In this document: one piece after another, positions 9,402 through 24,072 of the stretch
Layout: each line of letters opens with the position of its first letter
Position numbering within the stretch: the first letter of the stretch is position 1
Assembly (NCBI RefSeq): GCF_026343335.1
Contig: NZ_JAPELX010000001.1
Location: forward strand, 5,332,001 to 5,396,000
Source: Streptomyces sp. NBC_00078
Lineage (GTDB): Bacteria > Actinomycetota > Actinomycetes > Streptomycetales > Streptomycetaceae
Direction: 5' to 3'
DNA length: 64,000 nucleotides
The notes under the pieces: model-generated
Databases searched by the model: none
Seen by the model: the letters and a program-made list of their open reading frames with translations, nothing else
What the model was told of the DNA's origin: nothing
Program-made: the position numbers and the translations under genes

Positions 9402-10417
9402 GCGCGACCACCCAGACCCCCAAGGCAGCGCAGAGCGGCACCATGTCCCGCGCCGCCCGCCTGCTCGGCGGCAAGCGGCTGCCCGTCATGGTCACGGCAG
9501 CCCTGTTCGTCGCCATGTACCTCGGTGGCCTCAGCCGGTACCAGAACTACGGGTTCGCCGAACCCCAGGTGTTCCTCAACCTGTTCATCGACAACAGCTA
9601 TCTGCTGGTGGCAGCCATCGGTGCCACCTTCGTCATCATCTCCGGCGGCATCGACCTGTCCGTGGGCTCGATGATCGGCTTCACCACCATGTTCACGGCG
9701 TGGCTGGTGGAACGTCAGGGGCTGCCCCTGGTGCTGGTGGTCCCCCTCGCGCTGGCCGTCGGCGCCTTCGGTGGCTTCCTGATGGGCTATGTGATCCACA
9801 ATTTCGAGATCCAGCCGTTCATCGTCACCCTCGCAGGGCTCTTCCTCTTCCGCGGACTGTGCCTGGTCATCAGCAAGGAGTCGATCTCCATCAGCGACGC
9901 CGAGGTGGGCACCCTGGCCCAGACGCGGGTGTCGCTCGGCCTGGGGGACCTGTCGATCGGCGCCGTCGTGGCCCTGGTCGTCCTCGGCGTCGCCTACTAC
10001 GTGCTCCAGTACACCCGCTTCGGACGCCGTGTGTACGCCATCGGCGGCAACGAGCAGTCGGCGCTGCTCATGGGTCTTCCGCTGGGCGGCACGAAGATCG
10101 CCGTGTACACGGTGAGCGGCTTCTGCTCCGCCCTGGCGGGTCTGCTGTTCATGCTGTACATCCAGTCGGGCGACCCGCTGCACGCCGTCGGCATGGAACT
10201 CGACGCCATCGCCGCCGTGGTCATCGGCGGCACCCTGCTGACCGGCGGTTCCGGTTATGTGCTGGGCACGCTCTTCGGTGTGCTGGTGCTCGGCCTGATC
10301 AAGAGCGTCATCACGTTCGAGGGGACGCTCAGCTCCTGGTGGACGAAGATCGCCACGGGTGTGCTGCTGTGCGCGTTCATCCTGGTCCAGCGGACCATGA
10401 CGGCACGCCGGAAGTGA
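9398..10417 (+). CDS. sugar ABC transporter permease (YjfF-like)
   Basis: A 339-residue second permease of the same family, the YjfF-type partner. Seen: ISGGIDLSVGSMIGFT, IQPFIVTLAGLFLFRG, YAIGGNEQSALLMG and ELDAIAAVVIGGTLLTGG. The ATG at 9398 overlaps the TGA of the preceding permease. The operon probably ends at the inverted repeat near 10502. With two different permeases and one double ATPase, the transporter matches the YtfQRT-YjfF architecture. Confidence 0.92.
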   Translation: MSATTQTPKAAQSGTMSRAARLLGGKRLPVMVTAALFVAMYLGGLSRYQNYGFAEPQVFLNLFIDNSYLLVAAIGATFVIISGGIDLSVGSMIGFTTMFTAWLVERQGLPLVLVVPLALAVGAFGGFLMGYVIHNFEIQPFIVTLAGLFLFRGLCLVISKESISISDAEVGTLAQTRVSLGLGDLSIGAVVALVVLGVAYYVLQYTRFGRRVYAIGGNEQSALLMGLPLGGTKIAVYTVSGFCSALAGLLFMLYIQSGDPLHAVGMELDAIAAVVIGGTLLTGGSGYVLGTLFGVLVLGLIKSVITFEGTLSSWWTKIATGVLLCAFILVQRTMTARRK

Positions 10418-11735: not shown

Positions 11736-12013
11736 AAGGACGGCTGGCTGCCGTCAGCCGAGCTTCCTTGCAAGCCGACCTGGCCAATGCGCTGGAGCGG
11801 AACACCCGTCTCGCCATGCGGGTGCGCCAATTGGAGAAGCGCCTGTCCCAGCAGCTCGGCGAGCAGGCATGGAGTGAGTCCGGACTCGGGGCCTCGCCGG
11901 ACATCGACCATCTCCTTCGACACGTCGTGCGACTGGAACAGGATCTCGCCGAGAAGTGCGGAGAGCTTGAGGCAAGGACGGAGGAACTCGAAGCAGCTCG
12001 GACCGCTAACTGA
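11736..12013 (+). pseudogene. DUF6262-like protein C-terminal fragment
   Basis: About 85 codons with RASLQADLANALERN, RVRQLEKRLSQQLGEQAW and a long predicted coiled coil (HVVRLEQDLAEKCGELEAR). This is the C-terminal pattern of the small DUF6262-type proteins that accompany multi-integrase elements in actinomycetes. The N-terminal half is missing. It adjoins an integrase fragment, so both probably derive from one such element by internal deletion. Confidence 0.55.
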
Positions 12014-12134
12014 GAACGTGTTTGGTCCTGGAGCAGGTTCCGCGCCAGCTCAGGACAGCTTCGCCAGCGGTGTTATCGGCTCGCCGGGCAGCTACACAGC
12101 TGCCCGGCGAGCCAATCAGTTCACCACAACGTCC
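12014..12134. mobile_element. short segment with a perfect 16-bp hairpin, possible IS end
   Basis: GGCTCGCCGGGCAGCT-ACAC-AGCTGCCCGGCGAGCC at 12078-12113 is a perfect 16-bp stem. The segment lies between two unrelated gene fragments and codes for nothing recognisable. It may be an IS terminus or a strong bidirectional terminator; no second terminus was found. Confidence 0.35.
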
Positions 12135-13010
12135 CAGGGTCGAGGACGGGACCGCGCCGGAGCTGACCAAGGCGTCGCCGGTGGGAAGGACCAGCTTCGT
12201 GGTGGTGGCGCGGTAGAGGCTGTCGTACGCCGTGACCTGCTTGGTGTAGGCGCTGCCGGAGACTCCGCCGGCATAGCGGGTCGAGGAGTCCACCTGGCCC
12301 TTGGCCAGGGTGTCGTAGGCGTAGTGGGTGAGCTTGTTAGCGTCGACCTGTTCCTCCAGCGTGGAGGTCAGGTCGGCGGTCGAGGCGGCGCTCCAGGTGT
12401 CGGTGGTGCGGCCGAGGGTGTCATAGGCGTAGATCGTGACCCGGCCGGCGCCGTCCTTGGTCCAGGAGGTCTGGTCGAGGTTGTTGTAGCCGGTGGTGAC
12501 GGTGCCCTTGTCGGGGTCGGTGGCGGAGGTCTGGCGTCCGAAGAGGTCGTAGACGTAGGACCACTTGCTGTCAGGACCGGTGATCGTGGACTGCTTGCCG
12601 TCGCGGGTGTAGGTGTACGCGGTGGAGGTGTAGGCGGCGCCGGTGGTGGCCCCGTAGCCGGTGTCGGCCGGGGAGGTACCGGAGTATTCGCGGCGTTCCA
12701 CCGTCCGACCTCGCGCGTCGGTGATGGTGCGGACCGCTGAGCCGCCGGAGACGGCGGTGGTGGCGGTGGAGTCACCGGTGTAACTGCTGGAGGTGGACCA
12801 CTTCTGCACGCCGTAGACGAACAGGGTGTTCGACGTGGGGCGTTCGGCGCCGTCGAAGACGACCTCAGTCTGCTTGGGCGCCTCGCCGTACTCGGCCCGG
12901 GTGTAGGTGCCTGACGGGGTTGCCGTCGAGTCGAAAATGTCGGCGTACGTCTCGTAGGCCAGGCCCCGGCTGTCGTAGCGGGTGTCCGTCAGCAGCCGGC
13001 CCCCGATCGC
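12135..13010 (-). pseudogene. RHS/YD-repeat protein internal fragment
   Basis: About 290 codons of tandem YD-type repeats: DTRYDSRGLAYE, YVYDLFGRQTSATDPDKG, IYAYDTLGRTTDTWS, THYAYDTLAKGQ and AYDSLYRATTTKLVLPTG. RHS/YD-repeat proteins are very large secreted or surface shells carrying C-terminal toxins. Here both ends are missing: upstream the frame passes into arsC-derived DNA, downstream it ends at the hairpin segment, so it cannot make a shell or a toxin. The open frame continues through both junctions (12006-13409), but the flanks do not read as RHS. Confidence 0.85.
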
Positions 13011-13280
13011 AGCTGTGCCGGTACGCCGAGCTCGTCCAGTAGTCCGCGAAGCCCGCGCTCGATTTCGTCGCGGATGGGCCGAACGTCCGCGGCGGTCTTT
13101 CCCGCAGGGTCGTCCAGAGTCCAGTCGAGGTAGCGCTTGCCGGGGAAGACCGGGCAGGCGTCGCCGCAGCCCATGGTGACGACGACGTCGGCGGCGCGGA
13201 CGATCTCGTCGGTCCAGGGCTTGGCGAACTCGCGGGAGATGTCGATGCCGCGTTCGGAGCCGCGGCATCCGCCAAGCGCT
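12989..13280 (-). pseudogene. arsenate reductase (ArsC) 3' fragment
   Basis: The C-terminal two-thirds of a low-molecular-weight-phosphatase-type arsenate reductase: GIDISREFAKPWTDEIV, VVTMGCGDACPVFPGKRYLDW, DDPAGKTAADVRPIRDEIE. The N-terminal P-loop with the catalytic Cys (normally CVHNAGRS) is absent and replaced by unrelated sequence, so it is inactive. Its 3' end overlaps the RHS fragment in another frame. Confidence 0.8.
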
Positions 13281-13491
13281 GATGGAATGTCGTGGGTGGC
13301 CCTCACCCCGGGTGGCGTCGGTTCCGCAGCACCAGCAGCCCAGATGACCGACACGCAGTTCCACGAGTCGACGGAGCTGTCGCCTGGCTCGAAGCACCCA
13401 ATGGTTCAAGGCCGGACGAACAACTGGAGTGATCCGAGTCCCTGTCGACTGTCCCGCTGCGTCAAGGCGTTCCCTCCCAGCGGGTGCGCGG
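13281..13491. other. short stretch without recognised content
   Basis: About 210 bases between the arsC fragment and the next intact gene. No gene, strong hairpin or promoter was recognised. It lies at the end of the gene-fragment mosaic. Confidence 0.4.
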
Positions 13492-13857
13492 CTACTTCGA
13501 GGCGTCCTCGATGGCCTCGAAGATGTCGGCGTCGGTCTCCTTCTGCCAGTCGGGCAGGTCGGGCCAGTCGGCGACGTATCCGGGCTTGGGGTCCTCGAAG
13601 TGCTTGTACATCTGGGCGGTCCAGCAGGTGGCGACGAAGCGGCTCTTCTGCTCGCGCGTGAGCCGGGATGCGTGGCCGTCGCTGCGGTCGAGGAACTGTC
13701 GCACCTGGTCGAACACCGCGCCGGCGGCCTGGCGCTCCCACTCCGGGGTCTCTTCCCAGGGGGTGATGTAGCCGGGCTTGGGTTCGCCAGGGAAGTGCTT
13801 TCGAACGCCGGTGATCCAAGCCTCGCGGAACACTCGTGCCCCCTCGATCTGCGACAT
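13492..13857 (-). CDS. small protein with an internal duplication (unknown function)
   Basis: A 121-residue protein I do not recognise by name. Two related halves are visible: KHFPGEPKPGYITPWEETPEW (residues about 20-40) and KHFEDPKPGYVADWPDLPDW (about 86-105), each followed by an acidic/aromatic segment ending in F-x-x-I/V. Start ATG at 13857 follows GAGGGGAAGG; an in-frame ATG at 13884 lacks a site. It starts 14 bases after the stop of the XRE/TPR regulator on the same strand, so it is probably co-transcribed with it. It is soluble, with no signal peptide. Confidence 0.7.
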   Translation of the reverse strand: MSQIEGARVFREAWITGVRKHFPGEPKPGYITPWEETPEWERQAAGAVFDQVRQFLDRSDGHASRLTREQKSRFVATCWTAQMYKHFEDPKPGYVADWPDLPDWQKETDADIFEAIEDASK

Positions 13858-13871
13858 GCCTTCCCCTCTCG

Positions 13872-15128
13872 TCACGTCGTGCACAGTGCGTCGATCTCGG
13901 CGCCCAGTTCGACCACACGGGCGTCGCGGGCGAGGGGGCCGAGGTCGGTTCGTAGCCCCTGGAGTTTACGGGCGACGTAGCCGGAGGACGTCGTCCGGGC
14001 GAGCTGCAGGGCCTCGCGGCCGTAGGTGAGGACCTGGTCCGGGTCGCGGCGCTTGGCACCGATGGACGCGAGGTCGGTCAGGACTGCGCCGCGTCGCCGG
14101 AAGGACTGGCCGGAGGCGAGCAGGTCCTGGCTCAGGGCGGTCGAGAGGGCCTTCTCGGCGAGGTCGAGGCGCCCGAGTTGGAGGTAGCGGGCGCCGCGTT
14201 CCTCGGCGAGGCGGGAGCCGTCGAAGCGCAGCCAGCCGCCGTTGTGGGCCGGGCCGCTCAGGTCTGTCACCTTTTCCGCCTCGTCCAGGGCACGCTCGCA
14301 GGCGGACAGGTTCCCGAGGGCGGCATACGCCTCGGCCTGGACGGAGGCGACCCAGTACCGGGTGGACAGCGAGCTGTCTCCGTGCCGCGCCACCCTCTCA
14401 GCGGCCGAGAGGGTGCCGACCGCCTCTGCGTAGTGGTGCTCGTAGAGGTCGACGTATGCGTGTCGGACCAGGGCGCATGCCCAGAGGTCGTAGGACTGGG
14501 CTTCTTTGCTGGCGGAGGCGGCGAGTGTGTAGGACGCGGCTGCGTCGGTGTAGCGGTTGCCGTCGAAGGACAGTTCTCCGGCGAGCTGGAAGAGGTCGCC
14601 GGCCGCGCTGCACAGGGCCTGGGATTCCGCCGCCGGTTGGCCGTCGAGGGTGTCGTTGAGCGTGGTGAGCTGGTCGCGAACGATCGGGTACACGGAGCCC
14701 TTGGCGCGGGCGAGTTGGTACACCTGCCACAGGTGGCCGTTCATGCGCAGGAAGTCTTCGGACGTCCCGCGCCGGGCTCCGTCGGCGAGGGCGGCGCTCT
14801 CGTCGGCGGGCAGCGCCACCAGGGCGCTGGTGACGGCTATGGCGCGCAGAAACTGGCGTCGGATCATGTCGTCGAGGTCCCCTGAGCCGTGGTGGTCGCG
14901 AGGCGGCGACCCTGCCGACTCCGGGCTGGCTGCTTGTGGCTGTCCCACCAGGGCGTCGAGTTCGTCAAGGTCAAGGTGCAGCAGCTCGGCCAGCCGTGGT
15001 CGTAATGGCGGCTGGGGGGTGGTGGTCCGAGTTTCCCAACGCCCGATCGTGCGCCGGTCGACGCCGAGGGCGTGCGCGAGCTCTTCCTGACTGTAGCCCA
15101 GCGCCCTGCGCCGCTCTGCAAGCCCCAT
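13872..15128 (-). CDS. XRE-family regulator with TPR-like C-terminal domain
   Basis: A 418-residue DNA-binding protein. Residues 1-60 are a helix-turn-helix (RRRALGYSQEELAHALGVDRRTIGRWE), followed by a linker and about 300 helical residues with repeated A/Y/L patterns (SYTLAASASKEAQSYD, VQAEAYAALGNLSACERAL, RYLQLGRLDLAEKAL) typical of TPR sensor domains in Streptomyces regulators. It is divergent from the 15295 gene, with phased TGTCCCA repeats in between, so it is the likely local regulator of the peptide-like locus. The TPR part may bind a small peptide or partner protein; that is inference. Confidence 0.88.
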   Translation of the reverse strand: MGLAERRRALGYSQEELAHALGVDRRTIGRWETRTTTPQPPLRPRLAELLHLDLDELDALVGQPQAASPESAGSPPRDHHGSGDLDDMIRRQFLRAIAVTSALVALPADESAALADGARRGTSEDFLRMNGHLWQVYQLARAKGSVYPIVRDQLTTLNDTLDGQPAAESQALCSAAGDLFQLAGELSFDGNRYTDAAASYTLAASASKEAQSYDLWACALVRHAYVDLYEHHYAEAVGTLSAAERVARHGDSSLSTRYWVASVQAEAYAALGNLSACERALDEAEKVTDLSGPAHNGGWLRFDGSRLAEERGARYLQLGRLDLAEKALSTALSQDLLASGQSFRRRGAVLTDLASIGAKRRDPDQVLTYGREALQLARTTSSGYVARKLQGLRTDLGPLARDARVVELGAEIDALCTT

Positions 15129-15178
15129 GCCGCCCCCTTTCCACGTTCCGGTCCGTGTCTACCCTGGCGGCGCTGATC

Positions 15179-15207
15179 TGTCCCATGAGTGTCCCAGGAC
15201 TGCCCCA
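15179..15207. promoter_or_regulatory. three 11-bp-phased repeats, candidate operator
   Basis: TGTCCCA at 15179 and 15190 and TGCCCCA at 15201 repeat at exactly 11-base intervals, one helical turn, in the divergent region between the XRE/TPR gene and the DUF6415-like gene. This suits cooperative binding of a regulator on one face of the DNA. Confidence 0.5.
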
Positions 15208-15294
15208 TGGATGCCGTGGTCCGCGCCAACCCGAGCCGGTTTTCTGGACGTTGTCAGCCACGACAACCGTGGACACCGGAGAAGGGGTGCGGGC

Positions 15295-15667
15295 ATGGGA
15301 ACTCACAGCGCCATGTCGTCCGAGGCGGCGCAGCTCTCGATCGTCTTGGAGACGGTCGACGAGGCCGTGGACACGGCGCTCGCCGTCGGGCTGGCGATGC
15401 CCGATCGTCCGGTGATCGACGCGACGACCCGGGACCTGGTCGGCCACCTCAGAGAGCTGATGGCCGAGGACCTCGGCTTCGACGAGGATCCAGCCGTGCA
15501 GGCGCTGTTCCGAGAGGGCTATCGGGTCCTCGACTTGACGCGCCGGCCCACAGCGGAGTCCACCCACTTCGGCGCCTACCAAGTACATGCGCGAAGTCGG
15601 CCTGCTGACCAGGCGCTTCGCCGACGCCTACCGCGAGAAGCAGGAACAGGACGAAGCCGATGGCTGA
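15295..15667 (+). pseudogene. DUF6415-like protein with a +1 frameshift
   Basis: First gene on the plus strand of the peptide-like locus, ATG 15295 after AGAAGGGG. The first 95 codons (LSIVLETVDEAVDTALAV, LVGHLRELMAEDLGF, ALFREGYRVLDLTRRP) look like DUF6415, annotated in Streptomyces near small natural-product clusters. After GAY the expected continuation KYMREVGLLTRRFADAYREK is present in the next frame; removing one C at about 15580 restores one protein of about 123 residues ending at 15667. It may be a real mutation, programmed shift or sequence error. Role unknown. Confidence 0.6.
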
Positions 15668-15806
15668 CGAAGCGCCCACTGATCTGCCCGTGCGCAGGCC
15701 GGGAGCGACCCTGCCGGAGCAGGAGCGGGCACGGCGCCTGTTCATCAGCCCACCCGGTCTACCACCCATCGTTCTGCAACCCAAGAAGGGCCACAGCGAA
15801 CAGTGA
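15660..15806 (+). CDS. small basic protein (48 residues), unknown
   Basis: ATG 15660 overlaps the restored stop of the DUF6415-like gene, and the stop overlaps the next start (CAGTGA). It encodes 48 residues, Pro- and charge-rich: LPVRRPGATLPEQE, then ERARRLFISPPG and a basic tail PKKGHSEQ. No recognised family. Chained overlaps on both sides argue that it is translated as part of the cluster. Confidence 0.5.
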   Translation: MADEAPTDLPVRRPGATLPEQERARRLFISPPGLPPIVLQPKKGHSEQ

Positions 15807-15895
15807 GGAACCAGATCACGGCCCAAGTCCTGTACGTCGTCTCGGTCCTTGCGCTCGGCGGCTCGATCACGCTGGCGGTGTCGCGAGGATGGTGA
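15803..15895 (+). CDS. single-helix membrane micropeptide 1
   Basis: GTG 15803 to TGA 15895: 30 residues with one hydrophobic helix (VLYVVSVLALGGSITLAV) followed by SRGW. It is translationally coupled to the preceding gene by overlap. Similar in size to the next micropeptide. It may be a membrane anchor, immunity or export helper; function unknown. Confidence 0.5.
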   Translation: MRNQITAQVLYVVSVLALGGSITLAVSRGW

Positions 15896-15916
15896 GACGG
15901 GGAAGCGACAGGCGCC

Positions 15917-16015
15917 ATGGCCCCTTACGGCTGGCGGCAGTGGCTGCTGTCCGCCCTGATCATCGGCTCTGCCTCACCGGTCGCCTGGGCCTTCTGGTAC
16001 TACGACCGCTCCTAG
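15917..16015 (+). CDS. single-helix membrane micropeptide 2
   Basis: ATG 15917 to TAG 16015: 32 residues, a cationic aromatic start (YGWRQW), one hydrophobic helix (LLSALIIGSASPVAWAF) and a WYYDRS tail. Begins 21 bases after micropeptide 1. Unknown function; listed because two consecutive short frames with membrane helices are unlikely by chance. Confidence 0.5.
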   Translation: MAPYGWRQWLLSALIIGSASPVAWAFWYYDRS

Positions 16016-16037
16016 CCGTCGACGGGCAATCACCGAC

Positions 16038-16122
16038 TCCCGCTCCGGCCGCGCGAGCCCTCAGGAAGACCCGGTTTCCCCGCCGGGGCGGGCTCAGCAA
16101 CTCCCCAGCGGCCGGAGCGGGA
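16038..16122 (+). repeat. long-range 15-bp inverted repeat
   Basis: TCCCGCTCCGGCCGC (16038-16052) and its exact complement (16108-16122) enclose 55 bases containing a smaller CCCCGCCGGGG fold. It follows the micropeptides and precedes the candidate precursor, so it may terminate the first transcript or be a structured leader of the precursor mRNA. Confidence 0.45.
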
Positions 16123-16278
16123 TCTCGCCACGGACAAACCCGGCGCCCTGCCGCCGTGGTGACCGCAGTACCCCGATAAGCCCCCGTCCCGGTCGCCGGA
16201 TCTGCCCGCGGCCGGGGCGGGTCCAGGGCTCCGCAGTTCGCGGGGCTCGTCCACTCACTCCGTAGGAGAGGAACGGCC

Positions 16279-16395
16279 ATGAACATCGACGAACTGTTCA
16301 CCGGTGACCTGGTCACCGGCGTCCCCAGCATGGACGCGGCGCTGCTCGACAAGATGCCGGGCGGCGGCGACAACAACGGCGACCACTGCAGCTGA
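16279..16395 (+). CDS. candidate RiPP precursor peptide (38 residues)
   Basis: ATG 16279, preceded by TAGGAGAGGAA, encodes MNIDELFTGDLVTGVPSMDA followed by ALLDKMPGGGDNNGDHCS. The first 25 residues are acidic and amphipathic, like a leader. The last 11-12 are a Gly/Asp/Asn-rich core (GGGDNNGDHCS) with one Cys. It sits directly before an ATP-dependent amide-forming enzyme and a methyltransferase, with a strong hairpin in between, which is how many RiPP precursors are arranged. No known precursor family is recognised. Core boundary and modification are inference; it may instead be a small regulatory peptide. Confidence 0.6.
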   Translation: MNIDELFTGDLVTGVPSMDAALLDKMPGGGDNNGDHCS

Positions 16396-16408
16396 TCAAC
16401 CTATGAGC

Positions 16409-16443
16409 GCGGTGGAGCAGGGCCACGCGCCCTGCTCCACCGC
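16409..16443 (+). terminator. perfect 15-bp hairpin between precursor and modifying genes
   Basis: Stem GCGGTGGAGCAGGGC (16409-16423), loop CACGC, and exact complement 16429-16443, starting 13 bases after the precursor stop. It probably attenuates transcription or stabilises the precursor mRNA, so peptide is made in excess over enzymes. There is no U-tract. Confidence 0.7.
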
Positions 16444-16465
16444 CTCGTGAGTGAAGGAGAAGCGG

Positions 16466-17938
16466 GTGCTTTCGTTTCGTTTGCGACTGGCCGACACCCG
16501 GAGCACGAACTGGCGCTGGGACACAGACCGTTGGGTAAACGGGCAGAGCTGGATCAGGCCGGCTCATGTAGCCGTCCTGGACGCAGAACTCGTGCCGGGT
16601 GACGGAACCGGCGTCTGTGCGCTGGTGAGAGAGGACAAGGGCGGGGAGGTGGACTTCACGTCAGTCCTTCTCCGCCCCGACGAGGTGCAGGTGTCGGCGG
16701 GCGTGTTCGGCACCGCGCCGCTGTACCTCGTAGCAGTCGGAGAAGACCTGTACGGCTCCTGGGACTTGGTGGACCTGCGGATCCACCTGCGACCTGACCG
16801 ACTCAATCCCCGGGTCGTGGCACGCACCCTGAGCAGACAACACCGCTACAGCGCGGACACCCTCTTCGAAGGGGTGTACCGGCTCACGGAACGCGCTACG
16901 GCCGTCTTCACGACCGCCGGACTCACGATCCTCTACCCCGAGCCCGCCCAGCACGTGCTGAAACCTCGAAAGCTGCGCGCGGATGTTGACCCCGTAGACG
17001 CTTTCGATGCGCTACTGAACGGGGTCATGGCCGAGTGGCCTTCCACGGCAAACTGCGTCGGCGTGGAACTCTCCGGCGGGGCCGACTCGGGCAACGTGTC
17101 TCTCTCAGCCGCCGCAGCAGGCTTCGGCTCCATCCACACATTTGGGCTGCTCATGGGCGGCCGGATCGGCTGGCTCCAACAAGCCAGACGCCGCATGCTG
17201 GCGGATCACCTGGGCCTGCGGGACACCTTTGTCCCAGCCATTCAGTACCCGCCCTTCGTGCCTGGTGGGGTACGGGAACGCGGAGCGCCGCACGATCCGG
17301 CAGGAGCCTTCTACCAGGAGGCTTTCGACGTCCTGCGCGGACACGTAGCCGCTCGTGGCTGCGAGGTGATCTTCACGGGCGGTGGTGGGGACGAGGTCAA
17401 TGCCTGCCACTCGCGTACGAACGCCGAACTTCCCGCAGCCGATCCCGTCCCGTGGCTCGGCGACAAGACCATCGAGGCCCTGGCCCAGGTGGACGAGAAC
17501 CTCGCCCCCATCCCCGTGCTCCCTGTACCCACGCTCGTGGCCTTCGGCCTGCACAACCCCGCCTACCTGCGACTCGGGATCTGGCCGATCGCTCCACTCG
17601 TCCACCCCCGAGTCGTCCGCTTCATGGAACAGCTGCCACACGAGCACAAACGGGGCAAGGCGATGTTCCGCAACCGCCTGCGGCGCGCGGGACTGCCCGA
17701 GTCCGTCGCGGCCCCCAGCGAACCGGAGAACTTCCTCGCGGTCATGGAGAGGGGCCTGCGAAGTTACGGTCTTCCGCTTCTGGACGACGTGCTTCGCGAG
17801 TCACTGCTGGTCGATCTCGGCTACGTTGATCCGGTCGCCCTGGCCCGGGCCCGGGATCACGCCGAGAAAGCCCCCGTGGTGCCTGACCTGCTGTGCGACA
17901 CACTCGCCCTGGAAGTCGGACTCCGGAGCCTTGCATGA
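16466..17938 (+). CDS. asparagine-synthetase-like amide-forming enzyme
   Basis: A 490-residue member of the asparagine synthetase B superfamily. The PP-loop pyrophosphatase signature ELSGGADSG is at residues 201-209, with FTGGGGDEVN further on and KRGKAMFRNRLRRAGLP near the C-terminus, all as in AsnB-like synthetases and lasso-peptide cyclases. The N-terminal part keeps a nucleophile-hydrolase-like fold pattern but has no Cys at position 2, so it should not use glutamine. GTG 16466 is chosen because AAGGAG ends six bases before it; an upstream in-frame GTG at 16451 lacks a site. It likely adenylates a carboxylate and forms an intramolecular or small-molecule amide. Stop overlaps the methyltransferase start. 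Confidence 0.8.
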   Translation: MLSFRLRLADTRSTNWRWDTDRWVNGQSWIRPAHVAVLDAELVPGDGTGVCALVREDKGGEVDFTSVLLRPDEVQVSAGVFGTAPLYLVAVGEDLYGSWDLVDLRIHLRPDRLNPRVVARTLSRQHRYSADTLFEGVYRLTERATAVFTTAGLTILYPEPAQHVLKPRKLRADVDPVDAFDALLNGVMAEWPSTANCVGVELSGGADSGNVSLSAAAAGFGSIHTFGLLMGGRIGWLQQARRRMLADHLGLRDTFVPAIQYPPFVPGGVRERGAPHDPAGAFYQEAFDVLRGHVAARGCEVIFTGGGGDEVNACHSRTNAELPAADPVPWLGDKTIEALAQVDENLAPIPVLPVPTLVAFGLHNPAYLRLGIWPIAPLVHPRVVRFMEQLPHEHKRGKAMFRNRLRRAGLPESVAAPSEPENFLAVMERGLRSYGLPLLDDVLRESLLVDLGYVDPVALARARDHAEKAPVVPDLLCDTLALEVGLRSLA

Positions 17939-18684
17939 GCAGCCTGGACATCGTGGAGGCGGAACGCCTCGAAGCGTCCAACCTCTTCTACCGGGATCCT
18001 GCGCTGTACGACAGCGCGCAGGCCGACAGTGACAGCGCCAGTGTCTGCCTGGAGCTCATCGACCGGCACTGCCCGGCAGCCCGCACTTTGCTGGACTTCG
18101 GCTGCGGTACCGGCAGGGATCTGGAGCTGCTGGCCCAGCGCTTCGACTGCACCGGCATTGATCTACAGCCCGGCCTGGTCGACTACGCGCGCCGCACGCG
18201 CCCCGGACTCGACTGCCGGGTCGGGGACATGCGTACTGTCCGACTCGGTCACACTGCTGACGTCCTGGTGTGCCTGGGGAACTCGCTCGCCTACGTGCAC
18301 GACAACGCGGACATCCAGGCAGCATTCCAGACATTCGCCGCGCACGCGCATCCGAACACCCTGCTCGTGTTGTGCTCCCCAATAGCCCCGATAGAGTCCC
18401 CGAGTCCTCAACAGGCTGGTGTCGAGACCCGCCTCGGGTCTGCCACCGTGGCCATCAGCTACGAGTGGGATCTGCGGACGCAGATCAACACCATGCGCCG
18501 GCACTGGGTGTTCGATTCGGGCGAGGAGTACCACGACTCCATCCGGCGACGTGTTCTCGGCCCTCGCGAACTGGAGCTGTACGCGCTCTCCGCCGGATTC
18601 AAGGTCCTGGAGATCGTGAACGAAGCAGGTGCACTGCCTGTCTCTGGCCCAAGCGCCTACACCGTAGCTCGCTATCAAGGGTGA
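17935..18684 (+). CDS. class I SAM-dependent methyltransferase
   Basis: A 249-residue methyltransferase with motif I LLDFGCGTGRD (residues 52-62), acidic post-motif GIDLQPGLVDYA, and VLVCLGNSLAYV as the motif IV region. The ATG overlaps the TGA of the synthetase-like gene (ATGA), so the two are coupled. The fold resembles small-molecule or peptide methyltransferases with a C-terminal beta-rich cap (YEWDLRTQINTMRRHWVF). In this context the likely substrate is the product of the neighbouring synthetase, perhaps a carboxyl or amine of the peptide; that is inference. Confidence 0.88.
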   Translation: MSSLDIVEAERLEASNLFYRDPALYDSAQADSDSASVCLELIDRHCPAARTLLDFGCGTGRDLELLAQRFDCTGIDLQPGLVDYARRTRPGLDCRVGDMRTVRLGHTADVLVCLGNSLAYVHDNADIQAAFQTFAAHAHPNTLLVLCSPIAPIESPSPQQAGVETRLGSATVAISYEWDLRTQINTMRRHWVFDSGEEYHDSIRRRVLGPRELELYALSAGFKVLEIVNEAGALPVSGPSAYTVARYQG

Positions 18685-18925
18685 AGCGTCGGCTAATTCC
18701 GTCGCAGCATGGAGAGATGGACCAGCCATCATCTGACTGTAAATGTCGCGGATGCTGGCGCGTTGCTCGACGCGGGAGGCGGTCGGGTTGGCACAGCCCC
18801 CTGTCGAATACGGCGATCCGGAATGATCGGAGATTCGTCGTCAGCCACATGGTTCAGGTGGCCCGCCAGTACGGGCTGAGCCATCAGATGCACAGCATCG
18901 AGGGCATCCGAAGGGACCAGTAGAG
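18685..18925 (+). pseudogene. remnant gene between methyltransferase and YdcF-like gene
   Basis: About 240 bases with lower coding quality. A start-like frame at 18709 (MERWTSHHLTVNVADAGALLDAG) runs out without a clear domain. A frame ending at 18923, immediately before the next start, reads VVSHMVQVARQYGLSHQMHS. The two lie in different frames and look like the ends of one internally deleted gene, but neither family is recognised. Confidence 0.35.
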
Positions 18926-19615
18926 ATGAGTCAGGGAGTGCCAGTGCCCAAGCACGAGCGGCGCCAGATCACCGACGAGCAGTTCCACGACGCGACGCTG
19001 ATCTGGGACTACCACCGGATGCGCCATGAGCAGCGGCCCTGCTCGGCGGCGATCGGCCTGGGCAGCCACGACCTCGGCGTCGCCACCACGGCCGTCAACC
19101 TCTACCGCGCTGGCCTTTTCCCGGTCGTGGTCTTCAGCGGCGGCAACAGCCCCACCACCCGCACCCGCTTCCCGCGCGGCGAGGCGGTCCACTACCGCGA
19201 GCATGCGCTGAGTCTGGGTGTGCCGAACGAGGCCATCCGGGTCGAGCCGAAGGCAGCCAACACCGGCCAGAACATCACCTTCTCCCGCGAGCTGCTGGCC
19301 GAGGCCGGCATCGCGGTCGAGTCGCTGCTGCTGATCTCCAAGCCGTACATGGAGCGCCGCTCGTATGCGACGTGCCGCAAGTTGTGGCCGGAGGTTGAGG
19401 TCGTGTGCGCCTCCGAGCCGCTGGAGTTGGACGACTACATCAAGTCGATCGGCGACGAGAAGCTCGTCGTCGACATGCTCGTCGGCGACCTGCAACGGGT
19501 GATCGAGTACCCGAAGCTCGGCTTCGCCGTCGAGCAGGACGTACCGGGCGATGTGAGTAGCGCTTACGAGCGCCTCCTGGACGCCGGCTTCGACAGTCGC
19601 GTCGTCAGTACCTGA
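18926..19615 (+). CDS. YdcF/SanA/ElyC-type DUF218 protein
   Basis: A 229-residue DUF218 protein. Seen: AIGLGSHDLGVATTAVNLYRAG, VVFSGGNSP, EAVHYREHALSLGVP and NTGQNITFSRELL, the usual YdcF series with a DUF218 metal/nucleotide-type pocket. No membrane helix, so unlike SanA/ElyC it should be cytosolic. Start ATG 18926 with a weak upstream site; a GTG three codons in is possible. YdcF-like proteins recur beside peptide and nucleoside clusters in actinomycetes, but their reaction is not established. It is the last plus-strand gene of the locus. Confidence 0.8.
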   Translation: MSQGVPVPKHERRQITDEQFHDATLIWDYHRMRHEQRPCSAAIGLGSHDLGVATTAVNLYRAGLFPVVVFSGGNSPTTRTRFPRGEAVHYREHALSLGVPNEAIRVEPKAANTGQNITFSRELLAEAGIAVESLLLISKPYMERRSYATCRKLWPEVEVVCASEPLELDDYIKSIGDEKLVVDMLVGDLQRVIEYPKLGFAVEQDVPGDVSSAYERLLDAGFDSRVVST

Positions 19616-19647
19616 TCCGCTGAGCATCGGGCCGAAGTGGCAGGTGT

Positions 19648-20043
19648 TCAGGAGCCGGGAAGCAGCGCGAGCACGGTGGACTGGACGAGCTGGGCAGCGG
19701 TGAGGAGGTTGGGGATGCCCCCGCAGCGTTCGACGAGGTTCTGGAGCATGTAGCGCAGGGTGCCGGGATCGCGTTCGGGTTCGTCCAGGCGCGGGGTGAT
19801 CACGTCGAGATCGCGCAGGGCGGCGTCCACTTCGGGGTACTGGCCGCGCAGTTCTTCCAGGCGGCGTCGGAGTCCCTCGATGCTTTCGCGGGCTTCGGTG
19901 ACGGCTTCGTTGGTGATGTTGTTGGTCTGGCTGACGTTCTGGGAGAACGCTGCAGCTTGGGCGGGCCCGGTCATGTGACCGGTGTTGATGATCCCGAAGT
20001 TGGGACCGTTCGGGGCCGGGTCGGGCTGGCGGCGGATGGGCAT
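19648..20043 (-). CDS. helical protein with N-terminal amyloid-like motif
   Basis: A 131-residue protein. Residues 15-41 contain NFGIINTGHMTGPAQAAAFS, a Gly/Asn/Gln-rich segment that matches the last 27 residues of the gene just upstream (17 of 27 identical). The rest is helical (EARESIEGLRRRLEELRGQY; NLVERCGGIPNLLTAAQLVQ) and ends in a short hydrophobic tail. Motifs of this G-x-M-x-GP-x-QA type resemble bacterial amyloid-signalling (BASS/RHIM-like) motifs that pair receptors and effectors encoded side by side. Begins 25 bases after the upstream stop. Function is inference. Confidence 0.6.
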   Translation of the reverse strand: MPIRRQPDPAPNGPNFGIINTGHMTGPAQAAAFSQNVSQTNNITNEAVTEARESIEGLRRRLEELRGQYPEVDAALRDLDVITPRLDEPERDPGTLRYMLQNLVERCGGIPNLLTAAQLVQSTVLALLPGS

Positions 20044-20068
20044 GCGGGGCTCCAGGGGGTCTTGCCGG

Positions 20069-20454
20069 TCAGTTCGTCATGGAGGGGTTGGCGGAGAGCG
20101 GTGCGGCCTGCACGGGGCCGGTCATAGTGCCGCCGTTCATGACGCCGAAGTTGTAGATCGCGGTGGCCTGTTGCTGGTAGGCGGCGATGTCGACGTTGTG
20201 GTTGCGCAGGAAGATCTCGGTGGAGTCAAAGACGCGGCGCTGCATCATCTGCACGTAGTAGCGGGCGTCGTCATTCGTGTGCATGTCTTCGATCCAACGG
20301 ACGCTGTTGACCTCGCGAAGGCTGACCGGCCCGCTGCCGGGATCGAGTTCTGGGCGCTTGCGCGGCTTGCGGCGTATGAGCCGGTCGAGCCCGAGGTAGA
20401 TGTCACCGAGGGCGTTGAAGGCTGTGCGGCTGAGCCACTTGAGGGAAGAGGATG
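20069..20454 (-). pseudogene. 5'-truncated protein with C-terminal amyloid-like motif
   Basis: A frame ending at 20069 whose last 27 residues (NFGVMNGGTMTGPVQAAPLS...) match the motif of the following gene. Upstream it reads WLSRTAFNALGDIYLGLDRL, VNSVRWIEDMHTNDDARYYV and STEIFLRNHNVDIAAYQQQA, a plausible helical effector-like domain. The only in-frame ATG is at MHTNDD. The good sequence runs without a start up to the integrase start at about 20452, where it stops making sense, so the 5' end appears lost at a junction. If translated from the internal ATG it would give about 70 residues. Confidence 0.5.
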
Positions 20455-21711
20455 GTCCCGACTGCCGACCACGGCATCGGTAAGCGTTGGCAGGTCCGTT
20501 ACCGCGACCTGGACGACCGCCAGCGCAAGGAGAACTTCCACACGAAGGCCGAGGCGGACAATCGCGCCGCCGAGGTCGACGTCGAGATCCGGCAGGGCTC
20601 CTACGTCGTCCCCGCCGAGACGAAGCAGACGCTCGTCGCCTACGCACAGAAGTGGCTCGACGCGAACTCCGTCGGCCCGACGACTGCGCTCCGCTATGAG
20701 GCGACGGTCCGCAACCACATCACCGAGCATCTCGGCCGACGCGAGATGCGATCCCTCAACCAGCCCTCGATCATCCAGGGTTGGATCCGGACGCTCCAGG
20801 ACAGCGGCCTCGAAGTGTCGACGATCGAGGGCATCTTCGACATCCTCTCCAGCATCCTCGGCGCGGCCGTGGAGGACGGGCTGCTGCCGAAGAACCCCTG
20901 CAAGGCGAAGTCGGTCAAGCTGCCGACGGCGACCAAGAAGAAGGTCATCCCTTGGTCGTTGGAGCGCGTACGCGCCGTCATCGCCGGGCTGCCGAAGCGC
21001 TTCCAGACAGGCGGCAAGCTCGCCTTCGGCTGCGGCCTGCGCCAGGGCGAGGTGTTCGGCTTCGCCGTCGAGGACATCGACTTCAAGGGCGGCTGGATCC
21101 ACGTCAACCGCCAGGTACGGCTTGTCGGTACGAAGCCCGTCTTCGCCCTGCCCAAAGGCAACAAGATCCGGTCAGTGCCCCTGCCGGCCCAACTTGCCGC
21201 CGCTTTCAAGGCCCACATGAAGGCGTTCCCGCCCGTCGCCGTCACCCTGCCCTGGGCCAAGCCGGACGGTGAACTGAAGACCTTCTGCCTCCTCTTCGTC
21301 GACGAGAAGAGCCGGGCCTACAACCGCAGCGTCTTCAACATGGGCGACTGGAAGCGCGCCCTGGCCGCCGCTGGCGTGATTCCTCCCCGCGAGCGCGGAG
21401 CGCGCTACCTCCAGGCGGCTCCGGAAGACGGCATGCACGCCCTCCGGCACGCGTACGCCTCCGTGCTCCTGGACGCGGGGGAGAGCATCAAGGCGCTCTC
21501 CGAGTACCTCGGCCACTCGGATCCTGGTTTCACGCTGCGGACGTACACGCACCTGCTGCCATCCAGCGAGACCCGCACCCGCAAGGCGATCGACGACGCC
21601 TTTACGGAAACGGAAGCCGAGGCGGAAGACGACGCCGACCCGCCCGCTACCCAGGGCACATCAGTGCCCCCAGCGAAATCAATGTGCCCTCAATGTGCCC
21701 TGGCCGCCTGA
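20452..21711 (+). CDS. tyrosine recombinase (integrase) of the integrated element
   Basis: A 419-residue phage/ICE-type integrase. Seen: N-terminal arm/SAM-like regions (YAQKWLDANSVGPTTALRYE, TVRNHITEHLGRREM), then the catalytic domain with GCGLRQGEVFGFA (first Arg), HALRHAYASVLLDAG (HxxR), LGHSDPGFTLRTYTH with the His/Trp-position His and nucleophile Tyr. The start MVPTADHGIGKRWQVRYRD is a few residues shorter than usual and lies at the junction with the truncated gene upstream. Its 3' end contains the arm-type repeats, and it is 70 bases from attR, as expected for a site-specific element integrase. Confidence 0.92.
   Translation: MVPTADHGIGKRWQVRYRDLDDRQRKENFHTKAEADNRAAEVDVEIRQGSYVVPAETKQTLVAYAQKWLDANSVGPTTALRYEATVRNHITEHLGRREMRSLNQPSIIQGWIRTLQDSGLEVSTIEGIFDILSSILGAAVEDGLLPKNPCKAKSVKLPTATKKKVIPWSLERVRAVIAGLPKRFQTGGKLAFGCGLRQGEVFGFAVEDIDFKGGWIHVNRQVRLVGTKPVFALPKGNKIRSVPLPAQLAAAFKAHMKAFPPVAVTLPWAKPDGELKTFCLLFVDEKSRAYNRSVFNMGDWKRALAAAGVIPPRERGARYLQAAPEDGMHALRHAYASVLLDAGESIKALSEYLGHSDPGFTLRTYTHLLPSSETRTRKAIDDAFTETEAEAEDDADPPATQGTSVPPAKSMCPQCALAA
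21653..21701 (+). repeat. arm-type integrase repeats, right
   Basis: ATGTGCCCT at 21682-21690 and 21693-21701 (11-base period) plus one inverted copy AGGGCACAT at 21653-21661, all within the 3' end of the integrase gene. The direct pair has the same sequence and spacing as 11278-11297 near attL. Confidence 0.55.
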
Positions 21712-21778
21712 CGGCCCCTCTCCGGCACTGAAAAGGGCGAGGCCCGAGGACCCCGCCCGCTACCAACGAAACCCCAGG

Positions 21779-22210
21779 TCACGGCCACACAAGGCAATAA
21801 GGCTGATGCCCCGCCTCATGCAACCGATGGCTGAAGTCCTGCCACTCGTGCAGCAGTTGGTAGACGTTGAACGCGTCGCGCGGGCCGCCGCGGTCCGGGA
21901 CCGTCGACCAGATGAAGGCTGCCGCGCCCACGGCTTCCTCGCCTATGCCGCGCAGGGGGTCGACGACCGTCATGGGGAGCTTGACGACCGCGTAGTCGGG
22001 GTGCAGGACGACCAGTTCGAGCGGCGGGACCTTGTGGAGGGGGACGCCTTCGATGCCCGTCAGCACCATCGCCGCCATCGTCTCCGGTTTGATCTTGGTG
22101 AACATGCCGTTCATGCCGAGCTCGTCGCCGCCGAGTTCCTCGGGGCGCATCGAGATCGGGACGCGGGCCGCGGTCGCGCCGTCCGGCGCGCCGAAGTACT
22201 TGTACGTCAC
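21779..22210 (-). CDS. conserved actinobacterial protein, integration target
   Basis: A 143-residue protein of unknown function, probably conserved in Streptomyces. Features: TYKYFGAPDGATAARVPISM at the start, GMFTKIKPETMAAMVLTG, LELVVLHPDYAVVKLPM, and the C-terminal HEWQDFSHRLHEAGHQPYCL. GTG 22210 is chosen because upstream codons are low-complexity. The 3' end lies in attR: the last seven codons come from the inserted element but encode the same PYCLVWP as the displaced copy at 11095. No catalytic motif or membrane segment is evident. Divergent from hemL. Confidence 0.8.
   Translation of the reverse strand: MTYKYFGAPDGATAARVPISMRPEELGGDELGMNGMFTKIKPETMAAMVLTGIEGVPLHKVPPLELVVLHPDYAVVKLPMTVVDPLRGIGEEAVGAAAFIWSTVPDRGGPRDAFNVYQLLHEWQDFSHRLHEAGHQPYCLVWP
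21801..21854. repeat. attR: right junction of the integrated element
   Basis: Identical to 11117-11170 over 54 bases and part of the target gene's coding end. The element supplies a replacement tail to its left (21779-21800) that still encodes PYCLVWP-stop through synonymous codons, so the target protein is unchanged by integration. Confidence 0.9.
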
Positions 22211-22752
22211 CCCCACCCGACCACCATTCCTGCTCCCCGCCCGGAGCGGCTCGCCCCGCCGGTCGATCCGCCGGTCGGTCCGATCGGGCTCAATCGGTAC
22301 ACCCTGCGCCTGACGGGCTTCGGCCTCCTCCGCCTCGCGTCGGTGCTTTCCCCGCCGGGCACGTCGAGGACCCAGGTCGTCAGTCCCCTCGCCCAGTCCG
22401 CCACCGCGATGCATATCTCCACCCGACTGCTTTTCTAGGATGCGTGGGCCCCGCCGCGCAACCCGATCATCGTGTCAGTGACCTCCCCCACGGCCGCCCG
22501 CCGAAACGTGCGTTGAAACACCTGTCCGCAGGATCTTCGCAGCCTCTGAACAAGCCTCCGTACACCTATACGTACGCCAGGGCCGTTTGAGCTGTGTGTA
22601 TCAGGTCCCAGTTTCGCAGATCGCGCGAGGAGGCGGCTGTCTCTCGGGTCAGCAGCAGCGCTCGCGGCCGCCCGCTCACCCTGGCCTACCCTGAGGATGT
22701 CCCTTGCAACCGGAGCCGGGTAAGTCGGAGAAGGTCGGAGAAGTCGCAGGTC
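22211..22752. other. divergent intergenic region upstream of hemL
   Basis: About 540 bases between the target gene and hemL. It should hold the hemL promoter, but no clear -35/-10 pair was identified. A short direct repeat (GTCGGAGAAGGTCGGAGAAGTCGCAGG) lies just before the hemL start. Open frames over 22290-22440 are wrong-strand translations. Confidence 0.4.
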
Positions 22753-24072
22753 ATGAGCGAACTGCCATATTCATACGAAGCGCCTGTCTCACAGGCACTG
22801 TTCGACCGGGCCGCGGCCGTCACGCCCGGCGGCGTGAACTCCCCGGTGCGAGCCTTCCGTGCAGTGGGCGGTACGCCCCGCTTCATGGTGTCGGGTACGG
22901 GCCCGTATCTGACGGACGCGGACGGGCGGGAGTACGTCGACCTGGTGTGTTCCTGGGGTCCGATGATCCTCGGGCACTCCCGCCCCGAGGTCGTCGCGGC
23001 CGTTCAGGACGCCGTCTCGCGCGGCACCTCCTTCGGGACGCCCGGCGAGGGCGAGGTCGCCCTGGCCGAGGAGATGGTCGGGCGGATCGAGCCCCTTGAG
23101 CAGGTGCGGCTCGTGTCCAGCGGGACCGAGGCGACCATGAGCGCCATCCGGCTCGCCCGCGGGTTCACGCGGCGCACCAAGGTGATCAAGTTCGCCGGGT
23201 GTTATCACGGTCACGTCGACTCGCTGCTGGCTGCCGCGGGCAGCGGTGTGGCCACCTTCGCGCTGCCCGACACCCCCGGCGTCACCGGCGCCCAGGCCGG
23301 CGACACGATCGTCCTTCCCTACAACGACCTGGAGGCCGTCCACGAGGCCTTCCACCGGCACCCCGGTGAGATCGCCTGTGTGATCACCGAGGCCTCGCCC
23401 GGGAACATGGGCGTCGTACCGCCGCAGCCCGGCTTCAACCAGGGACTGAAGGACGCCTGCTCGAAGAACGGCGCGCTCTTCATCTCCGACGAGGTCATGA
23501 CAGGCTTCCGGACCAGCCGTGCCGGGTGGTTCGGGATCGACGGGGCCAGGCCCGACCTGATGACCTTCGGGAAGGTGATGGGGGGTGGCTTCCCGGCCGC
23601 CGCCTTCGGTGGTCGTGCCGAGGTGATGGCGCACCTCGCGCCCGCCGGGCCCGTCTACCAGGCCGGCACTCTCTCCGGGAACCCGGTCGCCACGGCGGCC
23701 GGCCTCGCCCAGCTGCGGCTCCTCGACGAGGCCGCCTACGACAAGGTCGACACGGTGTCGGAGACCGTCCGGTCGCTCGTCACCGAGGCGCTCACCAAGG
23801 AAGGCGTCGCACACCGGCTGCAGAACGCCTCCAACATGTTCTCCGTCTTCTTCGCGGACCGTGAGGTCCGCGACTACGAGGACGCCAAGAAGCAGGAGTC
23901 CTTCCGCTACACCGCGTTCTTCCACTCGATGCTGGCGCAGGGCGTCTATCTGCCGCCCTCGTCCTTCGAGTCCTGGTTCGTGTCCACGGCCCACGACGAA
24001 CAGGCCGTACAGCGCATCGCCGACGCCCTTCCGGCGGCGGCCCGAGCGGCGGCGGAGGCCAAGGCAGCATGA
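22753..24072 (+). CDS. hemL: glutamate-1-semialdehyde 2,1-aminomutase
   Basis: A 439-residue PLP enzyme that makes 5-aminolevulinate from glutamate-1-semialdehyde in C5 tetrapyrrole synthesis. Seen: [72 protein letters not shown] and the PLP-lysine segment [21 protein letters not shown] 22753 gives the normal N-terminus; the longer upstream frame is spurious. Its stop overlaps the phosphatase start. The heme link fits the cytochrome c maturation genes downstream. Confidence 0.97.

What the first reader, a model, noticed from the sequence alone, without database searches (positions are those of the whole stretch)
15129..19615. Possible undescribed peptide (RiPP-like) pathway carried by the integrated element
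A divergent XRE/TPR regulator faces a coupled plus-strand series: DUF6415-like gene, 48-residue protein, two single-helix micropeptides, a 38-residue candidate precursor, a strong hairpin, an asparagine-synthetase-like enzyme without the glutaminase Cys, a methyltransferase and a YdcF-like protein. AsnB-like enzymes lacking glutaminase include lasso-peptide cyclases and beta-lactam synthetases (established). Here the usual lasso leader-binding and protease proteins are absent, so the combination does not match a class I know. That the short peptide is the substrate is inference.
Basis: partly seen in the sequence, partly recalled or inferred. Interest (0 to 1): 0.86.

Follow-up and report, generated by a model that had tools for sequence, protein, structure and literature searches.

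The report
Undescribed peptide pathway with asparagine-synthetase-like enzyme
A tiny, almost unchanging peptide gene sits just in front of an unusual asparagine-synthetase-like enzyme in many soil bacteria, which points to an undescribed family of ribosomally made, chemically modified peptides whose enzyme probably closes a ring between a fixed lysine and a fixed aspartate.

Summary
The 38-aa ORF (16279-16395) precedes a glutaminase-less asparagine-synthetase-like (AS-like) enzyme in 37 of 38 intact window-type loci; its last 14 residues are almost invariant. Eight of 11 decayed enzyme genes have lost it.

AS-like relatives down to 29-42% identity also have short ORFs upstream with the same design: leader [LVI]F-x7-V[P/Q], core K-x-x-[G/E]-x-x-D-x(3-5)-D/E. 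Lys stands exactly six residues before Asp in 21 of 22 (shuffle maximum 9). A leader+core pattern matched 56 times in 1.08 Mb, six frames; all 56 are precursors.

Tailoring genes follow core type: methyltransferase (window type), GNAT acetyltransferase, or ABC exporter. Lasso B1/B2 homologues: none in 80 loci; a separate lasso cluster lies 2.75 Mb away in the genome.

Best reading: an undescribed RiPP family. The AS-like enzyme probably adenylates the invariant Asp and the invariant Lys attacks, giving a seven-residue side-chain lactam without a protease. The RiPP assignment is strong; the bond is inferred. DUF6415, micropeptides and YdcF are accessory or unrelated. A 2026 survey lists lasso cyclases, TsrC, ScdTA and PesC as characterised AS-like RiPP enzymes, with about 300 uncharacterised; I found no description of this family.

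The parts
13872..15128 (-). Divergently transcribed NsdA-family HTH/TPR regulator (418 aa)
   Evidence: NCBIfam NF053720 164 bits, cut-off 75. A different NsdA-family regulator is divergent to the same unit in the ~64% clade (447 bits) and in ABC-type loci (363 bits).
15295..15669 (+). DUF6415-like ORF, frameshifted after residue 96 compared with homologues; accessory
   Evidence: Pfam 18.0 bits, below gathering 27.5; homologues continue YMREVGLLTRRFADVYRE..; only in a subclade of about ten loci.
15660..15806 (+). 48-aa ORF, accessory, function unknown
   Evidence: 62-85% identity in the window subclade only; no family match.
15803..15895 (+). 30-aa probable single-helix micropeptide, accessory
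   Evidence: 56-86% identity in the same subclade.
15917..16015 (+). 32-aa probable single-helix micropeptide, accessory
   Evidence: 69-87% identity in the same subclade.
16279..16395 (+). Precursor peptide gene, 38 aa: MNIDELFTGDLVTGVPSMDAALLDKMPGGGDNNGDHCS
   Evidence: 37 of 38 intact window-type loci (plus in-frame variant L023); pN/pS 0.38; GGAGAGGA ribosome-binding site.
16294..16326 (+). Leader recognition motif LFTGDLVTGVP, [LVI]F-x7-V[P/Q]
   Evidence: 21 of 22 actinobacterial precursors share it; a VFAKAPRVGPTP-like stretch also occurs in a Rhizobium peptide.
16351..16392 (+). Core segment KMPGGGDNNGDHCS with motif K-x-x-G-x-x-D; Lys25 and Asp31
   Evidence: Lys at -6 of Asp in 21 of 22 sequences, shuffle maximum 9 of 22; residues 24-37 invariant in the window clade except one indel variant.
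16409..16443 (+). Hairpin between precursor and synthetase genes, 15-bp stem, 5-nt loop; probably trims read-through so that precursor exceeds enzyme
   Evidence: A strong hairpin of quite different sequence at the same place in window-type loci and in divergent L082, L085, L136, L187.
16466..17938 (+). AS-like amide-forming enzyme (490 aa, GTG start; ORF can be read from 16451), no N-terminal Cys
   Evidence: Asn_synthase 35.7 bits; conserved SGGxDS and GxGGDE motifs; nearest solved relatives beta-lactam and carbapenam synthetases.
17935..18684 (+). Class I SAM methyltransferase coupled by ATGA overlap
   Evidence: Methyltransf_25 48.4 bits; found in 53 loci, all of window type, down to 42-45% identity in L136/L137.
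18926..19615 (+). YdcF/DUF218 protein, neighbour, not part of the conserved unit
   Evidence: Pfam 62.6 bits; present only in the closest relatives L001, L002, L004.
20452..21711 (+). Tyrosine integrase, neighbour; mobility of the unit not shown
   Evidence: Phage_integrase 56 bits; partial copies downstream of the unit in L002-L004 only.

Best explanation
The region carries a minimal RiPP pathway of an undescribed family. The 38-aa peptide is the substrate. Its LFTGDLVTGVP segment is the recognition leader and is probably bound directly by the AS-like enzyme, because no separate recognition protein is encoded. The enzyme adenylates the side chain of the invariant Asp31. The side-chain amine of the invariant Lys25, six residues upstream, then attacks, giving an intramolecular isopeptide ring K-M-P-G-G-G-D. 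Because the nucleophile is a side chain and not a new N-terminus, no dedicated leader protease is needed before cyclisation. In the window subfamily the coupled methyltransferase then methylates the GDHCS tail or another core residue; in sister subfamilies an acetyltransferase or an exporter takes that place. A hairpin behind the precursor gene keeps precursor in excess of enzyme, and an NsdA-family regulator controls expression. Shown by sequence: precursor-enzyme pairing, both motifs, core-specific tailoring genes, missing B1/B2, missing glutaminase Cys. Inferred: adenylation of Asp, Lys as nucleophile, ring topology, methylation site, order of steps, final release by a housekeeping protease. 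My odds: RiPP pathway with this peptide as substrate about 0.9; Lys-Asp lactam given that, about 0.55.
For: Precursor in 37 of 38 intact window-type loci and absent in 8 of 11 broken ones. K-x5-D in 21 of 22 divergent precursors against a shuffle maximum of 9; the motif was written down before about 20 further precursors were read, and all of those fitted. Leader+core pattern specific to precursors in 1.08 Mb. Enzyme relatives are amide-forming and glutaminase-dead: carbapenam synthetase Foldseek E 1e-9, beta-lactam synthetase profile E 1e-8. GxGGDE loop like the lasso cyclase of the same genome, GHGGDE. MTase, GNAT and ABC genes follow core types; B1/B2 none in 80 loci. Hairpin at the same place with different sequence.
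Against: No product, mass or structure is known. One precursor (ACP-fused, L089) has leader and Asp but no Lys, so Lys may not be the nucleophile everywhere. A second acidic residue 10-12 after Lys is also conserved and could be the acceptor. The Tyr of the beta-lactam-synthetase dyad is not conserved here. The AlphaFold model is weak (mean pLDDT 63.7), so binding of the leader by the N-terminal domain is untested.
Confidence: 0.52

Rival explanations
1. RiPP pathway, but the AS-like enzyme uses free ammonia (or another small amine) to amidate or nitrilate a carboxylate of the core or C-terminus, like TsrC, ScdTA or PesC.
For: AS-like enzymes with these activities in RiPP pathways are published, and PesC works with ammonia (PMC13060819). 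Two conserved acidic residues offer targets.
Against: No homologue here has the nucleophilic Cys for glutamine use. A conserved Lys at fixed spacing would be unexplained. Type-1 C-termini vary (HCS, HCK, HCSK, HCSVQR), so the C-terminus is not a fixed target.
Confidence: 0.17
2. Protease-dependent lasso-like cyclisation: a housekeeping or trans-acting lasso protease frees an N-terminus near the Gly, and the enzyme joins it to the second Asp (ring of 8-10 residues).
For: GxGGDE loop as in the lasso cyclase; Gly three residues after Lys is common; own genome holds a lasso B1/B2 pair elsewhere.
Against: B1/B2 absent from all 80 loci; Gly replaced by Glu in the ABC type (KPQESSD, KAAETSD); window-type cores would leave only a three-residue tail after Asp35.
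Confidence: 0.1
3. Scaffold pathway: the enzyme attaches a small amine or amino acid to the activated Asp or C-terminus of an invariant carrier peptide, and the small molecule is later released, as in peptide-aminoacyl-tRNA-ligase pathways.
For: Core almost invariant across the window clade, as expected for a carrier; an ACP-fused precursor exists in L089.
Against: Cores differ strongly between subfamilies although K-x5-D stays; no oxidases or release peptidases in the conserved unit.
Confidence: 0.12
4. Not a RiPP: the short ORF is a regulatory leader peptide (attenuator) or signal unrelated to the enzyme's substrate, and the enzyme makes a small molecule.
For: A hairpin follows the ORF; an NsdA-type regulator is adjacent.
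Against: Protein-level conservation with synonymous change, Lys and Asp kept in cores of otherwise unrelated sequence, and core types that track different tailoring enzymes are hard to explain by attenuation.
Confidence: 0.07

Closest known systems
Lasso peptide pathways (NF033535 lasso cyclase, B1 RRE, B2 protease)
   Same: AS-like, glutaminase-dead enzyme next to a short precursor; predicted activation of an Asp side chain; GxGGDE loop.
   Different: Far below the cyclase cut-off (22.9 against 525 bits); no B1/B2; proposed nucleophile is a Lys side chain, not a new N-terminus.
Graspetides (omega-ester/omega-amide RiPPs)
   Same: Would give the same kind of bond, a Lys-Asp side-chain amide.
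   Different: Graspetides use ATP-grasp ligases; here an AS-like enzyme of another fold.
Beta-lactam synthetase and carbapenam synthetase
   Same: Nearest solved relatives; intramolecular amide formation by a glutaminase-dead AS-like enzyme.
   Different: Small-molecule substrates; the Tyr of their catalytic dyad falls on a variable position here.
TsrC, ScdTA and PesC (AS-like RiPP enzymes, PMC13060819)
   Same: AS-like enzymes acting on ribosomal peptides.
   Different: They amidate or nitrilate the C-terminus; here no glutaminase Cys and a variable C-terminus.
Daptide methyltransferase (NF041820)
   Same: Best NCBIfam match of the methyltransferase (30.8 bits; 58.8 for L136).
   Different: Cut-off 175 bits; no other daptide gene was recognised in the unit.

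Membership tests
RiPP (general) | Short ribosomal precursor with leader and core, genetically tied to a modifying enzyme | tested here: met
   37/38 intact loci, co-loss, shared leader and core motifs
RiPP (general) | Post-translational modification of the peptide shown | not testable with these tools
   needs expression and mass spectrometry
Lasso peptide | B1 (RRE) and B2 (transglutaminase-like protease) encoded with precursor and cyclase | tested here: not met
   0 of 80 loci
Lasso peptide | Cyclase of the lasso family | tested here: not met
   22.9 bits, cut-off 525; albusnodin type 19.8, cut-off 300
Lasso peptide | Acceptor Asp/Glu at core position 7-9 from a new N-terminus | tested here: inconclusive
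   no defined cleavage site; Gly of the motif is not conserved in the ABC type
Graspetide | ATP-grasp ligase next to precursor | tested here: not met
   the synthetase is PF00733, not ATP-grasp; no ATP-grasp match among the neighbouring window genes scanned
Glutamine-dependent asparagine synthetase | N-terminal Cys nucleophile and score over TIGR01536 | tested here: not met
   no Cys after Met in 32 aligned homologues; 24.1 bits, cut-off 267
Beta-lactam synthetase | Tyr of the catalytic dyad | tested here: not met
   aligned position is variable in the family
AS-like C-terminal amidase/nitrile synthetase (TsrC, ScdTA, PesC) | modification of the C-terminal carboxylate | not testable with these tools
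   C-terminus variable in window type; chemistry needs assay
Daptide | daptide methyltransferase over cut-off | tested here: not met
   30.8 and 58.8 bits, cut-off 175

The most novel reading that the evidence does not exclude
A new RiPP class in which a glutaminase-dead AS-like enzyme, acting alone and without leader protease or recognition protein, closes a seven-residue Lys-Asp side-chain lactam on an intact precursor; it occurs in several tailoring subfamilies in Actinomycetota and may reach rhizobial quorum-sensing loci.
Probability: 0.45. Interest if true: 0.86.

Novelty: new variant of a known kind. Interest (0 to 1): 0.78.

Why it matters
If right, this adds a further route to side-chain lactams in ribosomal peptides (besides ATP-grasp ligases and lasso cyclases) and supplies a one-enzyme, protease-free macrocyclase family with several natural core types. 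It also identifies part of the roughly 300 uncharacterised AS-like RiPP candidates, or candidates beyond them, reported in 2026 (PMC13060819). Strong relatives (E below 1e-40) occur in about 7-9% of the Streptomycetaceae and same-genus genomes sampled, yet at least one standard annotation missed the precursor, so these units are easily overlooked.

Tried and rejected
(1) Lasso cluster with hidden B proteins: no B1/B2 homologue within reach in 80 loci. (2) Chance ORF: rejected by conservation and pattern specificity. (3) DUF6415, micropeptides and YdcF as pathway members: rejected, restricted to close relatives. (4) Solved-structure hit for the single enzyme: none by phmmer; the profile finds beta-lactam synthetase. 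(5) AlphaFold of the synthetase: weak model, mean pLDDT 63.7; used only for a fold search. (6) Literature searches for core strings and for AS-like RiPP enzymes: no description of this family; most subscription papers and preprints are not in the library. (7) Rfam: nothing in 12000-23000; promoter and terminator scan: nothing. (8) Viral-contig scan with the family alignment could not run, no conserved stretch. (10) Tree with the own-genome lasso cyclase: its long branch makes the root unusable, but the window clade plus L126/L127 (the methyltransferase type) is one supported clade.
Full report
Observation. The synthetase probably starts at GTG 16466, preceded by AAGGAG, because homologues begin at this residue. 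The synthetase stop and methyltransferase start overlap (ATGA). None of the 32 aligned homologues has a Cys after Met1, so the glutaminase nucleophile is absent throughout the family.

The precursor is real. tblastn with the 38-aa peptide finds it just upstream of the synthetase in almost every relative. Among the 51 loci from public genomes, 38 intact synthetases with enough upstream sequence have 37 intact precursors: 36 fit the strict pattern and L023 carries an in-frame leader repeat. L026 has a frameshift in the leader. Of 11 decayed synthetases, eight have none. Over 53 copies and 33 distinct nucleotide versions pN/pS is 0.38; the leader drifts, residues 24-37 do not. On one conjugative Streptomyces plasmid the annotation names a different 58-aa ORF and misses the precursor.

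A wider family. Synthetases only 29-42% identical to the window's and two on Streptomyces plasmids are also preceded by short ORFs. From the first of these I wrote down a motif, K-x-x-[G/E]-x-[S/G]-D with a [LVI]F...VP leader. About twenty further precursors read afterwards all had K-x5-D. In 22 actinobacterial precursors Lys stands at -6 from an Asp in 21; residue shuffles reach at most 9. The exception is the ACP-fused precursor of L089. A second acidic residue follows at +10 to +12 from Lys. A strict leader+core pattern matches 56 times in six frames of 1.08 Mb; 54 are the upstream peptides and the remaining two are also precursors, in loci where the synthetase frame was not placed correctly. 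This pattern was derived from the same family, so the count measures specificity; searches are the prospective test.

Tailoring. Homology searches over 80 loci find the methyltransferase in 53 and a GNAT protein in 11; an ABC exporter-like protein lies beside the enzyme in six. They go with different core types: GGGDNNGDHCS-like, mainly YKKxSGSSDxxxTYDTT-like, and mainly KPxExSDQGRFED-like. The methyltransferase persists with the far relatives L136/L137, whose cores end in GD[H/Y]CSVQ[R/A]. NsdA-family or related regulators accompany most units. Lasso B1/B2 from the same genome's lasso cluster match nothing in these loci.

Enzyme. Pfam Asn_synthase is the only domain. Lasso-cyclase, albusnodin-type and asparagine-synthase models score far below cut-offs. 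A family profile finds beta-lactam synthetase first (E 1.2e-8), and Foldseek lists carbapenam synthetase, the hydroxyamidotransferase TsnB9 and beta-lactam synthetase, though the model is poor overall. The beta-lactam-synthetase Tyr position is variable; the GxGGDE loop resembles the genome's own lasso cyclase.

Operon. A strong hairpin follows the precursor gene in the window-type loci, with at least two unrelated sequence solutions, and in four divergent units. This fits the usual RiPP need for excess precursor (established for many RiPP operons; inference here).

Mechanism. By the established chemistry of AS-like enzymes, a carboxylate is adenylated and an amine attacks. The invariant carboxylate is Asp31, the invariant amine is Lys25. 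A Lys-Asp ring needs no new N-terminus, which explains why no protease or recognition protein is encoded. All of this is inference until a mass shift is measured. The ACP-fused precursor of L089 lacks the Lys and is the main counter-example.

Comparison. PMC13060819 (2026) surveys PF00733: about 3,500 of 3,800 RiPP-associated members are lasso cyclases, TsrC and ScdTA amidate, PesC makes nitriles, and about 300 are uncharacterised. Nothing found describes the present family. I call it a new variant of a known kind (RiPP with AS-like enzyme); if the lactam is confirmed it would be a class of its own.

Limits. Genomes were sampled, not enumerated. Literature coverage is partial. No chemistry was tested.

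Noticed in passing
window 15295-15669: The DUF6415-like gene is frameshifted after residue 96 compared with six intact homologues, so it may be decaying in this strain.
   Followed up: yes
L190 4290-6377, L201 1976-3805 (Rhizobium plasmids): A related AS-like enzyme (about 30% identity) with a conserved 52-aa upstream peptide (..AAMIKGGKPGDMDKLDV) lies close to acyl-homoserine-lactone synthase genes (and rhiA in L201); Lys-x5-Asp and a VFAKAPRVGPTP-like leader recur there.
   Followed up: partly
L089, upstream of the synthetase at 7427-9499 (-): A precursor-like leader (GVFAGEPVLAVPAL) is fused to an acyl-carrier-protein-like domain and its core lacks the Lys; an ABC transporter lies upstream.
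   Followed up: partly
L189 4463-6302 (Xanthomonas sacchari plasmid): Related AS-like enzyme with a 54-aa upstream ORF, an oligopeptide symporter before it and an S9 peptidase after it.
   Followed up: no
G000:C1 about 2578000-2580000 (L192, L194, L196): The same genome holds a separate lasso peptide cluster with B1, B2 and cyclase, 2.75 Mb from the window.
   Followed up: partly
L188 4765-7908 (Mesorhizobium plasmid): AS-like enzyme in a run with a 54-aa ORF, a phosphotransferase and a GNAT protein, near a radical SAM gene.
   Followed up: no
L023 and L062 precursors: The leader contains an in-frame repeat (MNVDELFTGDLITGDLITGDLITGVP..) that leaves the core intact; a natural leader-spacing variant.
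   Followed up: no
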